Below the pieces are notes generated by a model that ran no database searches, was not told where the DNA came from, and saw nothing but the letters and a program-made list of their open reading frames with translations. From assembly GCA_945865885.1 (NCBI GenBank), contig CAMBEZ010000006.1:1-64000 (forward strand): a stretch of 64,000 nucleotides of DNA, given 5' to 3'. Position numbers and translations under genes: made by a program. Position 1 is the stretch's first letter. Each line of letters starts with the position of its first letter. The stretch comes from Owenweeksia hongkongensis DSM 17368 (GTDB taxonomy: Bacteria; Bacteroidota; Bacteroidia; Flavobacteriales; Schleiferiaceae). This document shows positions 1 to 4,039 of this stretch, in pieces.

Positions 1-1115
1 GCATAATTGTATTCACGTAATCCAGCAATTGAAACCGCCCACTTATCGATTAGTCCAGAAGTAGAAACCTCATTCAGCTCCTTGTAGAAAGTATCGGGGG
101 TACTTGCCGTAAAACCTTTTCCGATCAAATCGTAATTGGGCGAAGCCACGGCATCAGTGGGCCAGACGGCATCGTGATAGTCTCCGCTGTAGGCAATAGC
201 AGGATCTTTAGAACTGGAGCAAGCCGGTTGTAAATTAATAATAGCGACACCCTGCATTCCATGACGAATGCTATCATGAACTTCATAGGTTACTGAATAC
301 GCGTAAGTTAACCCATTCTGATCTACTACACCGTCAATTCTGGGGTGTGTAATAACGTTTGACGGTAGATTGTTGCCCGATGTGAAGCCACTTAGGACTG
401 TGTTATAATCAAATAAATCAATACAGTCATTGCCCGTAATTGAATCAATTCCCTGAGCTACGAACAGGTATTTTTGATCGTCGTACACCTGTACATCCGG
501 CCGGAAGCGGTCAATAATTTTTCCGCCTTGGGTAAGTCCAATGTTTAGAACCGGCAAGGACGTCCCAAAGCCACCCGTTAGGGTTCCTTCGGCATATTTC
601 AAATCGCTGCTGCCAACCGAAGTTTCAAAAACGATCACTTCGGGATCGCGACTGATGGAATCGGTTGGGTTATCGATGTTTGGATGATGGGCATTGGCGT
701 GCACCAATTTTGGAGTGCTCAAAGTCAAAACGCCCGGGGAGTACGTAAACGTTCGGAATTCAATGCCTGTTCCTTTTTCGTTAACCACTACGCCGGAAGT
801 TCCATCCAGGCCAAAGACAATGTCCGGATCCCACGAACCAGAGGGCAAGGGCTGGATGAAAACGCCCATCCCGGGCTCATAAACGGCGATGCCCGGACTG
901 TCTCCATCCCAAGTATACGCGTGCGCAACCCCCTGGGCACAGCCGCTGCATTCACTGATGGCGGCTCCTGTATTTTCTACATTTGCATAAGGCCCGCCTG
1001 GCAGGATAAAGTCGTTGGTTTTAGCGGGATAAATTTGTCCTGATACGGGTAGAACGGCCCCAAACAGGACAATAAGTACCGTCAGCCTTTTTAGGAAATG
1101 CGTATTGTTTTTCAT
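1..1115 (-). CDS. Secreted protein of unknown function (3' end beyond window)
   Basis: The frame is open from the ATG to the window edge, giving 371 visible residues. Residues 1-27 look like a Sec signal peptide (basic start, hydrophobic core LTVLIVLFGAVLP, then SGQ), so the product should be exported. After it comes a Cys pair at about C56/C59 (ECSGC) and a region rich in Gly, Asp and Thr with beta-type patterning. I do not recognise a catalytic motif. The C-terminus, where a type IX sorting domain would lie, is outside the window. The gene lies in the AT-rich block at the start of the window and has one of three near-identical 20-bp inverted repeats upstream (1233-1252), so it may be co-regulated with the kinase operon. 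The coding call is firm because there are no stops and a clear signal peptide. The function is unknown. Confidence 0.75.
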   Translation of the reverse strand, partial: MKNNTHFLKRLTVLIVLFGAVLPVSGQIYPAKTNDFILPGGPYANVENTGAAISECSGCAQGVAHAYTWDGDSPGIAVYEPGMGVFIQPLPSGSWDPDIVFGLDGTSGVVVNEKGTGIEFRTFTYSPGVLTLSTPKLVHANAHHPNIDNPTDSISRDPEVIVFETSVGSSDLKYAEGTLTGGFGTSLPVLNIGLTQGGKIIDRFRPDVQVYDDQKYLFVAQGIDSITGNDCIDLFDYNTVLSGFTSGNNLPSNVITHPRIDGVVDQNGLTYAYSVTYEVHDSIRHGMQGVAIINLQPACSSSKDPAIAYSGDYHDAVWPTDAVASPNYDLIGKGFTASTPDTFYKELNEVSTSGLIDKWAVSIAGLREYNY

Positions 1116-1232
1116 TTGTTTCTGATTCAGAATTGATTTTTTATTGGAACGAGTGTACCAAAACAGGAGTGAATTCGGTCCAAAAATTCACCCTATTTGA
1201 TGATACAATGTTATCGGTTATTCCGAAAAGAA

Positions 1233-1252
1233 ACGTGATAGAAAAATATCAT
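1233..1252. promoter_or_regulatory. Inverted-repeat operator-like site, copy 1
   Basis: Reads ACGTGATAGAAAAATATCAT, with arms TGATA/TATCA. It lies between the Cys-rich gene and the secreted-protein gene, about 118 bases upstream of the latter's ATG. It matches copies at 1699-1718 and 4020-4039. A possible -7-like element for the secreted gene (minus strand, 1181-1188, AATTTTTG) would put the site near -65. Binding by the adjacent LuxR-type regulator is inference. Confidence 0.55.
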
Positions 1253-1346
1253 GCTGGAGCGATTTAAGTCAATAAATCGGGAATTTGGTCTTTGTAGGAA
1301 GGTTTGGGTTGAAAAAAGGGGAGTCCATCAAAATGCATTTGCTGGT

Positions 1347-1649
1347 TCATTTTTTCCGGCACGACTTCTCCGCGTTGGCCGAGACCGGGTTCCGACGAAC
1401 CGATGCTTTTACATCAAAGCAATCCGTAAAATGGGATGCGTTGTGCGCGCTGCAGAGCGGCACAATGAGCCAAGGGCTGTGTTCGTCGTCGCAGGCTTTA
1501 ACGCGGCCACCCACAACCGCCTTGGTGGTGCATTGAATGACGGAACATTGGGGCGTGCTGTGGCTGCCGTTGTTTTTCATCCAGTGGTCCAACCAGCTGG
1601 TGCAGTTGCAGGTCAATCCTGTTGTATTCGGAGTGTTTTTAAATTGCAT
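1347..1649 (-). CDS. Small Cys-rich treble-clef/HNH-like protein
   Basis: Encodes 100 residues with C14, C16, C35, C40, C53, C66, H69 and C77. The core WLIVPLCSAHN resembles the IVPLC.xHN motif of small proteins found in Bacteroidota and elsewhere, in which paired Cys and a His-Asn couple suggest a zinc-binding treble-clef fold related to HNH modules. I know this type of protein by pattern only; no function is established to my knowledge, and a complete nuclease active site is not evident. There is no signal peptide, so it is probably cytoplasmic. A 20-bp inverted repeat shared with the neighbouring operon lies upstream at 1699-1718, and a -7-like element (TAAAATTG) at 1672-1679. A weaker plus-strand open frame covers the same bases but lacks this conserved pattern. 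Confidence 0.7.
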   Translation of the reverse strand: MQFKNTPNTTGLTCNCTSWLDHWMKNNGSHSTPQCSVIQCTTKAVVGGRVKACDDEHSPWLIVPLCSAHNASHFTDCFDVKASVRRNPVSANAEKSCRKK

Positions 1650-1698
1650 GGGAATTTCTAATAATGCCCTGCAATTTTATCAAGTATTATGGAGAAAT

Positions 1699-1718
1699 AC
1701 GTGATAGAAATCTATCGT
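1699..1718. promoter_or_regulatory. Inverted-repeat operator-like site, copy 2
   Basis: Reads ACGTGATAGAAATCTATCGT, with arms GATAG/CTATC around AAAT. It lies between the response-regulator stop and the Cys-rich gene, centred about 60 bases upstream of that gene's ATG. It shares at least 16 of 20 positions with the other two copies. Confidence 0.6.
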
Positions 1719-1730
1719 TTATGAGCGATT

Positions 1731-2345
1731 TTAGTTTTCCCAAAAACGAAACCGCCTCATTAATTCCTCTTGGCTATCGCATTCGTTGATGTCGCGGGCT
1801 TTTGCGATGTGGTTGTCAACCGTGGTGGCGGATATTTTTAAGATTTCAGCGGCTGACTTTCGGTTGTGTCCTTGCTTGATGACGTTCAATACCTTGATTT
1901 GGCCTTTGGTCAACTTCAAAGGGGCCGTTTCTTTGTACGTACTTGTGGAAAGCTTGGTTTGAATGACTAAGGGGCAGAAGTAGGATTCTCCGTGCAGCAG
2001 TGCTTGAATGCCCCGTTTCAAGGCCTCAATTCCAGAGGTCTTTGAAACGTAGCACGGCACTTCGTAGCGCTCAAAAAGTTCGATGAGCATTTTATTGACG
2101 TGTGAACTGAAAATGAGCACCGGCTTGGCGTTGGTGCGCGCCGTTTCCATAAGGCTCGGGTTGCAACCCTCCGTCAATTCCAGGTCGCTTATCACACAAT
2201 CCACGGGAAGACGTTGTGAAAAATGTTCCAGGGCTTCTGGGATTGTGGCATACTCAAATATTTCGGCATTGGGCAGTACGTCCAACACGTACTGCTTGAC
2301 AACAAACCGAATGGCTTCGTGGTCGTCAAGAATCAGAATTTTCAT
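1731..2345 (-). CDS. LuxR-family two-component response regulator
   Basis: Contains an N-terminal receiver domain beginning MKILILDDH, with the acidic pair near the start and the phospho-acceptor Asp in CVISDLEL (about residue 54 from this start), a Ser-Ser switch in LIFSSH and the Lys in YVSKTSG. A C-terminal GerE/LuxR helix-turn-helix follows (LTKGQIKVL ... ISATTVDNHI). It should be phosphorylated by the kinase encoded immediately upstream and bind DNA through the HTH. An ATG nine bases further upstream is also possible; either start overlaps the kinase stop, so the two are translationally coupled. The shared inverted repeats upstream of its own operon, the Cys-rich gene and the secreted gene are the obvious candidate targets, but that is inference. 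Confidence 0.93.
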   Translation of the reverse strand: MKILILDDHEAIRFVVKQYVLDVLPNAEIFEYATIPEALEHFSQRLPVDCVISDLELTEGCNPSLMETARTNAKPVLIFSSHVNKMLIELFERYEVPCYVSKTSGIEALKRGIQALLHGESYFCPLVIQTKLSTSTYKETAPLKLTKGQIKVLNVIKQGHNRKSAAEILKISATTVDNHIAKARDINECDSQEELMRRFRFWEN

Positions 2346-3093
2346 AGGGTACACTAATCGTATGCGTTACAACTTGATCTTGAACGGTGATCTTTTGTTT
2401 TGCACCGATGATGCGCAAACGGTCTCCAATGATCAACGTGCCAAAACCACTTTTAGCATTCCTTTTCCCCGTGATCCATTTCACAGCTTCGGGAGTGGCC
2501 CGGTAAACCACCATAATATTCAATACATCCTCTTCGTCGACGGTTGATATTTGAATTCGCGATACGTGAGCGTGCTTAATGGCGTTGGTGAGTATTTCTT
2601 GAACAGCCCAATAGGCGTGGTGGAGAAATTTTTCTGAAGGATACCGTACGGCATGGGACTCAAAAAAAACCCGTACGTTGCCCATGGACATTTGGAGCGC
2701 CATGGACTTAAAGCTCGTTTTCCAATTCGGTGTCGCAAGACCCTTGGGGTACATGAATTCTACGATTTGATGTGTTTTGTCTTTGAACAATTGATAGTCC
2801 ACCTCCAATTGGTTCAATGCAATGAGTTGTTCGGCGTTCAATTCAGTCTTGAGCCGCTCAAAATTGTGGGACATCCTCACCCAGTGTGCGCCCAATTGAT
2901 CGTGAAGTTCACTGGCGATTCGTTTCCGTTCCGTGTCAACGCCTTTAAAGCTTAGGTTATAAAGCCGGTGCACCACCGCGGAATACCTACGCAGTACGAT
3001 TCTACTGAAGGTGAAGGTGCCTATCAGTATGATCGCAGCCGTTGAGGTAATTGCGAATAAACTAATGATTAAAGAATCTCCTGAGTTGGACAT
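2326..3093 (-). CDS. Sensor histidine kinase, HisKA_3 type (NarL/LuxR partner)
   Basis: Has one N-terminal transmembrane helix (hydrophobic run ISLFAITSTAAIILIGTF), then a HisKA_3 dimerisation box with the phospho-acceptor His in ERKRIASELHDQLGA, and a HATPase domain with N-box (EILTNAIKHAH) and a glycine-rich G-box (SGFGTLIIGDRL). No periplasmic sensing domain is present, so the signal may come from the membrane protein encoded upstream. The start chosen is the ATG 32 bases inside the preceding gene's end; another ATG lies 30 bases further upstream. It overlaps the response regulator at its 3' end. The catalytic elements are all visible, so the class is certain; the stimulus is unknown. Confidence 0.92.
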   Translation of the reverse strand: MSNSGDSLIISLFAITSTAAIILIGTFTFSRIVLRRYSAVVHRLYNLSFKGVDTERKRIASELHDQLGAHWVRMSHNFERLKTELNAEQLIALNQLEVDYQLFKDKTHQIVEFMYPKGLATPNWKTSFKSMALQMSMGNVRVFFESHAVRYPSEKFLHHAYWAVQEILTNAIKHAHVSRIQISTVDEEDVLNIMVVYRATPEAVKWITGKRNAKSGFGTLIIGDRLRIIGAKQKITVQDQVVTHTISVPYENSDS

Positions 3094-3655
3094 GTAGTGC
3101 AACAATAGTTGTGGTGAATACAATTAAATTCCCGGCACCCATGTAAAGAATGAGTTGAGCTGCTTGCCAATCAAAGTTAAATTTCCGTAGAATTAAGATG
3201 GACATGGAGAACATCAAGTCTATGGCTAAAATAATATAGATCACGGATTTTTGAATATTATGACTGCTCAATTTAGCCAATTTATTGGCTTTATTTATAA
3301 GAAGATAAATCGCTGTAATGTATAAAATCAAGTAGATTAAATAATGATATAAAATCAAATTAATCAAAGACAGCAATAGTGTCAAAGGCGCCAAATAGAT
3401 TAATTTCAGCTTCTTGGCAAAACTTACGGCTACGACTATTCCGAGTGGAGAAAAAGCATGGTAAAATCGAAAAAGGGGATCACTTTGATTTAAAAAAATG
3501 TGCCCCAAGTTGTTCAGTAATAATATAAAAATGTAATAAATTACTTCGACGTGATTTACGATTGATTTACGCCTTATAAAGAGATTGAATAATACTCTAC
3601 AAAAAAGTATGGTTATTGCAATGAATTCCAGGATTGGATACCATTTTTGAATCAT
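3062..3655 (-). CDS. Polytopic membrane protein of unknown function
   Basis: About 197 residues with roughly six hydrophobic segments (for example AITILFCRVLFNLF, VIYYIFILLLNNLG, LTLLLSLINLILYHYL and IVFTTTIVALHV), very rich in Leu, Ile and Tyr. No family motif is recognised. The chosen ATG overlaps the previous stop as TGATG, a classical coupling arrangement; an in-frame upstream ATG would overlap more deeply and is less likely. The gene is visibly more AT-rich than the rest of the window, which suggests recent acquisition. Its position between a small CPTTC protein and a kinase lacking an input domain suggests a membrane-embedded sensor or transducer, but this rests on context alone. Confidence 0.8.
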   Translation of the reverse strand: MIQKWYPILEFIAITILFCRVLFNLFIRRKSIVNHVEVIYYIFILLLNNLGHIFLNQSDPLFRFYHAFSPLGIVVAVSFAKKLKLIYLAPLTLLLSLINLILYHYLIYLILYITAIYLLINKANKLAKLSSHNIQKSVIYIILAIDLMFSMSILILRKFNFDWQAAQLILYMGAGNLIVFTTTIVALHVQLRRFFNH

Positions 3656-3963
3656 CAAATCATCAATTCCGAATTTGTAAAACAGGTAGTGGGGCAATTC
3701 AGTGCACGATTGAGGAGCACTCCATCCGTCATGTCCGCGCCATTGGCGTCAACACCCACCACAACAATGGTCAGTTTGTCGTCATCGTTCAAGGCGAAAT
3801 ACGTGCGAATGTTCACACAGTCGGATTGATCCATGATCAGTTGGTACGCTTCTTTATCGATCATACTGGCAACCGTTAACCCTTGGAATTGTGTTGCATT
3901 CTGGAACGCATGGGTCATGGTTTGCGCTTGATCTAAGGTAATTACGTGGCTGTTGGTTGACAT
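3655..3963 (-). CDS. Small conserved-type protein with C-terminal CPTTC motif
   Basis: A 102-residue protein beginning MSTNSHVITL, chosen because it is the first ATG downstream of a good -7 element at 4002-4009; the upstream alternative is a TTG. The middle half predicts a beta-alpha-beta unit (LTIVVVGVDANGADM) followed by NCPTTC. In my recollection short Bacteroidota proteins with a V.VGVD.NG.DM core ending in CP..C occur next to small membrane proteins, but no function is assigned. There is no signal peptide. It is the first gene of a four-gene operon with a membrane protein, kinase and regulator. The two close Cys could bind metal, form a disulfide or be modified; the sequence does not decide this. 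Confidence 0.75.
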   Translation of the reverse strand: MSTNSHVITLDQAQTMTHAFQNATQFQGLTVASMIDKEAYQLIMDQSDCVNIRTYFALNDDDKLTIVVVGVDANGADMTDGVLLNRALNCPTTCFTNSELMI

Positions 3964-4001
3964 GCTTGTAGTTTTTTTTGGTTTCAACAGCGAATTACGT
4001 T

Positions 4002-4009
4002 CAAATGTA
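4002..4009 (-). promoter_or_regulatory. -7 element of the signalling operon
   Basis: TACATTTG on the minus strand matches TAnnTTTG. It would start transcription near 3998, about 35 bases before the ATG of the first operon gene, and the inverted repeat at 4020-4039 would cover the -33 region. Confidence 0.6.
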
Positions 4010-4019
4010 TTTAGCGGAG

Positions 4020-4039
4020 ATGATAGAAATCTATCACGT
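4020..4039. promoter_or_regulatory. Inverted-repeat operator-like site, copy 3
   Basis: Minus strand reads ACGTGATAGATTTCTATCAT, with perfect TGATAG/CTATCA arms. It is centred about 32 bases upstream of the inferred start of the four-gene operon, so a bound regulator would either contact or block RNA polymerase. Matching sites lie at 1233-1252 and 1699-1718. Confidence 0.65.

What the first reader, a model, noticed from the sequence alone, without database searches (positions are those of the whole stretch)
1233..4039. Candidate self-contained signalling regulon with three copies of a 20-bp operator
Seen: three near-identical inverted repeats (ACGTGATAGA..., at 1233-1252, 1699-1718 and 4020-4039 in opposite orientation) lie upstream of, respectively, a secreted protein, a Cys-rich treble-clef-like protein, and a four-gene operon ending in a HisKA_3 kinase and a LuxR-type regulator. 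In the last case the site overlaps the -33 region of a clear promoter (TACATTTG at 4002-4009). Known: NarL/LuxR-type regulators bind inverted repeats about this size and often control their own operon. Inference: the regulator encoded here binds these sites and drives an autoregulated response with an exported effector. I know no described system with this set of genes.
Basis: partly seen in the sequence, partly recalled or inferred. Interest (0 to 1): 0.87.

Follow-up and report, generated by a model that had tools for sequence, protein, structure and literature searches.

The report
Operator-marked two-component regulon for secreted proteins
A small gene cluster in an uncultured Bacteroidetes bacterium encodes a sensor system, and a matching DNA switch, set at one fixed distance from the promoter, marks a changing set of exported proteins; the same switch recurs in related genomes that carry this regulator, and the core gene set is widespread in the class but apparently undescribed.

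Summary
The three sites are copies of one palindrome, TGATAKWWWWMTATCA; a fourth lies elsewhere in the genome, upstream of a GH16-like gene. Outside the operon's own site, each copy has a TAnnTTTG-type -7 box exactly 22 nt downstream, which centres it near -42, a class II activator position. Over 12 sites in five genomes offset 22 scores 57/72 (next 35; shuffle maximum 38), and three sites found later obey the rule. A site-plus-spacer pattern gives 16 hits in six regulator-bearing genomes, all at regulon loci, and only chance-level hits in 394 genomes without a close homologue. The operator therefore tracks this LuxR-type regulator. Targets vary: T9SS-type surface proteins, GH16-like proteins, SpvB/TcdB/RHS polymorphic-toxin-like genes. 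The core order (small protein, multi-span membrane protein, HisKA_3 kinase, response regulator) recurs across Bacteroidia; the small protein has no Pfam, NCBIfam, PHROG or PDB match. DNA binding, activation and the signal are untested. At the operon's own promoter the site is 11 nt from a strong -7 box, so the sign of autoregulation is open.

The parts
1236..1251 (-). operator S1, TGATATTTTTCTATCA read towards the secreted-protein gene
   Evidence: followed after exactly 22 nt by a -7 box
1206..1213 (-). -7 box TAACATTG at offset 22 from S1
   Evidence: a similar site and the same box lie upstream of a homologous gene in G410 (L160)
3..1115 (-). secreted protein with signal-peptide-like N-terminus, truncated by the contig end (371 aa seen, no Pfam or NCBIfam hit)
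1702..1717 (-). operator S2, CGATAGATTTCTATCA
1672..1679 (-). -7 box TAAAATTG at offset 22 from S2
1347..1649 (-). Cys-rich 100-aa protein (C-x4-C ... VGGxV ... PLCxxHN), scattered homologues in Bacteroidia
   Evidence: orthologue beside the regulator in G068 and G086
1731..2345 (-). LuxR/NarL-type response regulator (receiver + GerE HTH), presumed to bind the operators
   Evidence: (Response_reg 30.2 bits, GerE 25.8 bits)
2326..3093 (-). HisKA_3-type histidine kinase, one N-terminal membrane span, H-box ELHDQLG, no DxGxG box
3062..3652 (-). membrane protein of 196 aa with about 6-7 hydrophobic spans, fast evolving, candidate sensor
3655..3963 (-). small soluble protein (102 aa), first gene of the operon; family found in 44 of 395 sampled Bacteroidia genomes
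4021..4036 (-). operator S3 at the operon promoter, TGATAGATTTCTATCA
4002..4009 (-). consensus -7 box TACATTTG at offset 11 from S3 (a weak GTAATTCG lies at offset 22, 3991-3998)

Best explanation
This is a compact two-component regulon. A multi-span membrane protein and/or the small first-gene protein feed a signal to the HisKA_3 kinase, which controls the LuxR-type response regulator. The regulator binds TGATAKWWWWMTATCA as a dimer, centred near -42, and recruits RNA polymerase to promoters with a -7 box fixed 22 nt downstream. That switches on the exported-protein gene, the Cys-rich gene and, on contig C38, a GH16-like gene followed by a probable envelope protein. It also acts on its own operon, probably activating it in most relatives; in the window genome the site overlaps the -33 region of a stronger promoter and may repress it. 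Shown here by sequence and comparison: the sites, their fixed spacing, their association with this regulator clade, and exported targets. Inferred: binding, phosphorelay, the sign of regulation, and the roles of the membrane and small proteins.
For: Genome-wide specificity of the palindrome. Co-occurrence with the regulator: all 4 family genomes with a regulator homologue of 47% identity or more have perfect palindromes beside it, against stray copies in 9 of 84 others (P about 3e-4). Fixed 22-nt spacing to TAnnTTTG: 57/72, next best 35, maximum of 2000 shuffles 38; confirmed out of sample by three new sites at 5/6, 5/6 and 6/6 where the background rate of 5/6 or better is 1.3%. Composite pattern with up to 1 mismatch: 16 hits on 14 palindromes in six regulator-bearing genomes, all at regulon loci. 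In 394 order genomes without a close homologue, 7 hits against 12 for the reversed-pattern control, and 6 of the 7 lie inside open reading frames. The HTH region T[TIL]xxNxIAxARxxNxC is conserved in regulators with sites and differs in the next relatives, which lack sites. A second, paralogous module in G411 has its own sites at the same spacing. The sigma-A box lies at -12 to -5 in Flavobacterium psychrophilum (PMC9723704), which puts the palindrome centre near -42.
Against: No binding or expression data exist. S3 in the window genome does not fit the 22-nt rule with its best -7 box, and two sites in relatives (G086 operon 3/6, G068 T9SS/RHS promoter 4/6) have poor boxes at offset 22. The kinase lacks the DxGxG ATP-binding box, so its activity is uncertain. 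All sources are MAGs: the L066 contig is filed under Methylophilaceae and is probably misbinned, and G410 contains a contig (L160) closely similar to part of the window genome.
Confidence: 0.78

Rival explanations
1. The sites belong to another transcription factor, or are a general promoter feature of this lineage, and only happen to lie near this operon.
For: Binding by the encoded regulator has not been tested.
Against: Promoter-placed sites were found only in genomes with this regulator clade, always including its own operon, even where the rest of the neighbourhood is different. Genomes of the same genus or family without the regulator lack them (G006).
Confidence: 0.1
2. The regulator is a repressor, and the sites silence exported genes until the signal arrives.
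For: In the window genome S3 overlaps the -33 region of a consensus promoter.
Against: Target sites are centred near -42, mostly upstream of imperfect -7 boxes and at one fixed helical phase, the layout of class II activation. A repressor site would not need one exact spacing across most of 15 promoters.
Confidence: 0.12
3. The operon is a cell-cell signalling system of the ComQXPA or Agr kind: the small protein is the precursor of a secreted signal, the membrane protein its processing or export factor. The operators would then be quorum-controlled.
For: The gene layout (small protein, membrane protein, HisKA_3 kinase, LuxR regulator) resembles ComQXPA; the small protein ends in a conserved CPxxC...L tail.
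Against: The small protein is about 100 residues, conserved along its length and predicted as a folded domain (pLDDT 88), unlike a variable leader plus signal peptide. The membrane proteins share no conserved Cys/His catalytic pair. No signal peptide except in one homologue (L113).
Confidence: 0.15

Closest known systems
UhpABC (UhpC membrane sensor, UhpB HisKA_3 kinase, UhpA LuxR-type regulator)
   Same: Separate multi-span membrane protein, HisKA_3 kinase and LuxR-type regulator (general knowledge); the best NCBIfam hit of the kinase is UhpB (E 3.7e-8).
   Different: The kinase score is far below the UhpB cut-off (32.6 against 408 bits); the membrane protein is about 200 aa with no family match; there is an additional small first gene; targets are exported proteins.
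ComQXPA / AgrBDCA peptide signalling operons
   Same: Four-gene layout with a small gene, a membrane protein or enzyme, a kinase and a regulator, with autoregulation (general knowledge).
   Different: The small protein is a conserved folded domain and the membrane protein has no conserved catalytic Cys.
LiaRS / NarQ-NarL type HisKA_3-LuxR systems
   Same: Same kinase and regulator families; palindromic operators of about this size (general knowledge).
   Different: Extra conserved membrane and small proteins, degenerate ATP-binding box, Bacteroidetes -7 box, T9SS/RHS cargo.
Bacteroidetes polymorphic toxins (RHS/SpvB/TcdB; TANFOR class, PMC7073777)
   Same: Two relatives (G068, G086) place a roughly 3000-residue SpvB-TcdB-RHS gene downstream of this operator, with orphan C-terminal cassettes in G068.
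   Different: The window genome has no SpvB gene; the TANFOR paper mentions no two-component system.

Membership tests
NarL/LuxR-type response regulator | receiver domain with acidic pair, phospho-acceptor Asp and Lys, plus GerE HTH | tested here: met
   Response_reg 30.2 bits at its cut-off 30.2, GerE 25.8 over cut-off 23.5; D7, D8, D54 and K102 invariant in the clade
HisKA_3 histidine kinase | H-box with phospho-acceptor His | tested here: met
   ELHDQLGAH conserved; Pfam HisKA_3 21.5 bits, below the curated cut-off 24
HisKA_3 histidine kinase | ATP-binding G1 box DxGxG | tested here: not met
   replaced by YRAT or YKAT in this clade; full box in only 5 of 23 module kinases
class II activator promoter | site centred near -41.5 at fixed spacing from the sigma-A box | tested here: met
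   offset 22; box position from PMC9723704; S3 is an exception
class II activator promoter | activation by the bound regulator | not testable with these tools
   needs binding and transcription assays
RHS/SpvB polymorphic toxin regulon | RHS/SpvB gene under the operator | tested here: not met
   absent from the window genome, present in G068 and G086
T9SS cargo regulon | C-terminal sorting domain on targets | tested here: inconclusive
   Por_Secre_tail over cut-off in the G007 target, below cut-off in G086; the window protein is truncated
GH16 glycoside hydrolase (C38 target) | GH16 domain over the curated cut-off | tested here: inconclusive
   17.9 bits against 22; a GH16 protein at 37.4 bits lies in the target operon of the second G411 module
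AgrB-like or ComQ-like maturation enzyme | conserved catalytic residues in the membrane protein | tested here: not met
   only single L, W, S and Y positions reach 60% in 18 sequences

The most novel reading that the evidence does not exclude
The small-protein/membrane-protein/kinase/regulator set is an undescribed signalling module of Bacteroidia, in part carried by integrative phage-like elements, that acts as a plug-in switch for exchangeable exported weapons or surface proteins. Its small protein is a new class of signalling component.
Probability: 0.35. Interest if true: 0.78.

Novelty: new variant of a known kind. Interest (0 to 1): 0.63.

Why it matters
It gives a case in Bacteroidetes where an operator, its likely regulator and the promoter geometry can be read from sequence alone, so the regulon of an uncultured lineage becomes predictable. 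It links a widespread, apparently unstudied four-gene sensor module, with a protein family that has no known fold relative, to control of secreted and polymorphic-toxin-like genes.

Tried and rejected
Looked for the same operator, or a shared one, upstream of the wider module family (19 loci): none, so the palindrome is clade-specific. Fold search of the small protein and the Cys-rich protein against the PDB: no significant match, and no sequence match for the small protein. SpvB in the window genome: none. Regulator and small protein in viral contigs and phage records: no close relative. Pattern hits in G410 at C198, C21 and C122, and in G068 at C2:1757, lack a box at offset 22 and were set aside as chance. 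The intragenic site L065:4403 inside the regulator gene was left out. A suspected frameshift in the G007 small gene was checked and is not there. Paper searches found no description of the module or operator; the library holds only open-licence papers, so absence there is weak evidence.

Full report
What is there. The window is the first 64 kb of contig C6 of a 1.81-Mb genome in 51 contigs. On the minus strand, from the upstream end, lie a small protein (3655-3963), a multi-span membrane protein (3062-3652), a HisKA_3 kinase (2326-3093), a LuxR-type response regulator (1731-2345), a Cys-rich 100-aa protein (1347-1649) and a secreted protein that runs off the contig (3-1115). The three repeats are at the stated places and are best described as TGATAKWWWWMTATCA at 1236-1251, 1702-1717 and 4021-4036.

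Are the repeats more than chance? In the whole genome the pattern with up to one mismatch matches only these three and one further site, C38:3658-3673, upstream of a GH16-like gene (17.9 bits, below the Pfam cut-off of 22) that is followed by a probable envelope protein.

Geometry. Read towards the gene, S1, S2 and the C38 site each have a -7 box exactly 22 nt after the palindrome: TAACATTG, TAAAATTG, TACCTTTG. Across 12 sites in five genomes (G000, G007, G068, G086, G410) the match to TAnnTTTG peaks at offset 22 with 57 of 72, next best 35; in 2000 dinucleotide shuffles the best value over all offsets never passed 38. In Flavobacterium psychrophilum the sigma-A box occupies -12 to -5 (PMC9723704), so the palindrome centre lies near -42, a class II activator position. 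Three sites found afterwards by the palindrome alone obey the rule (5/6, 5/6, 6/6; background 1.3%), while pattern hits away from regulon-like genes do not.

The exception is S3, the operon's own site in the window genome and in G007: the consensus -7 box is at offset 11, one helical turn closer, and only a weak box is at 22. In G068 and in the Lake Erken MAG the operon site has a box at 22. Activation of the operon in most relatives and repression of a stronger promoter in the window genus is the reading offered; it is inference.

Which protein binds? In 88 genomes of the family only four have a regulator homologue of 47% identity or more, and all four carry perfect palindromes beside it; 9 of the other 84 have one or two perfect copies somewhere (P about 3e-4). 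Two more contigs, L065 (G410) and L066 (G411), hold the operon and sites, and G411 has a second, diverged module with its own sites at the same spacing. The combined pattern (palindrome, 22 nt, TAnnnTTG) with one mismatch allowed gives 16 hits on 14 palindromes in the six regulator-bearing genomes, all at regulon loci. Exact hits in 394 genomes of the order without a close homologue number 7, no more than the 12 of the reversed-pattern control, and 6 of the 7 lie inside open reading frames. The recognition-helix region is conserved among regulators with sites and differs in the next relatives without sites. That ties the operator to this regulator; binding itself is untested.

What is controlled. 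Targets differ between genomes. In G000: the truncated secreted protein, the Cys-rich protein and the GH16-like gene. In G007: a 554-aa protein with a T9SS sorting domain. In G086: a T9SS-type protein followed by an SpvB/TcdB/RHS gene, the Cys-rich gene and a membrane protein. In G068: a homologous T9SS-type protein followed by an SpvB/TcdB/RHS gene of about 3000 residues with orphan C-terminal cassettes. In G410/G411: a 547-aa secreted protein and a large surface protein; in the second G411 module a GH16 protein (37.4 bits) among others. No SpvB gene is in the window genome.

The wider module. The small first gene belongs to a family found in 44 of 395 sampled Bacteroidia genomes. In 20 loci examined at length, 19 have the membrane protein and a HisKA_3-type kinase next to it, and most a response regulator after that. 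The family has no Pfam, NCBIfam, PHROG or PDB match; its model is confident (pLDDT 88) and has no significant structural match. The membrane protein is fast evolving, with no conserved catalytic residues, which suits a receptor. Only 5 of 23 module kinases keep the full DxGxG box. The Cys-rich family is scattered elsewhere without the module.

Mobility. In G068, G667, G770 and G623 the module lies beside related integrative elements with a tyrosine integrase, Sak4-like ATPase, RadC, endolysin or other shared genes. Between G068 and G667 the element proteins are 67-94% identical while the module proteins are only 27-43% identical, so the module looks exchangeable. Two element proteins match Salisaeta icosahedral phage 1 records weakly. 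No such element borders the module in the window genome.

Limits. All evidence is sequence comparison of MAGs with possible binning errors. Activation, the signal, and the parts played by the small and membrane proteins are unknown. Statements about UhpABC, ComQXPA, Agr and class II activators rest on general knowledge.

Noticed in passing
L084 and L061 (G068:C2:1-30000), L121, L124, L120, L066: A family of integrative phage-like elements (tyrosine integrase, Sak4-like ATPase, RadC, endolysin, primase-helicase) sits beside divergent versions of the module; two of its proteins match Salisaeta icosahedral phage 1 weakly.
   Followed up: partly
L085:6002-11126 (G068): Downstream of the RHS gene lie a possible immunity lipoprotein, two orphan RHS C-terminal cassettes and an IS3-type transposase, a typical polymorphic-toxin locus layout.
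   Followed up: partly
L066 and L162 (G411:C7): The contig is filed under a Methylophilaceae bacterium but carries Bacteroidetes-type secreted genes and this module twice; probable misbinning.
   Followed up: no
L160 (G410:C51): A contig of the Lake Erken MAG carries a close homologue of the window's S1 promoter and secreted-protein gene, next to a HipA/HipB-like pair; either strain mixing in the bin or transfer.
   Followed up: no
L113:1483-2214: One homologue of the small protein has an N-terminal signal-peptide-like stretch and extra domain, so it may be extracytoplasmic there.
   Followed up: no
L111:76-1412: Here the small gene is followed by two tandem membrane-protein genes instead of one.
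   Followed up: no
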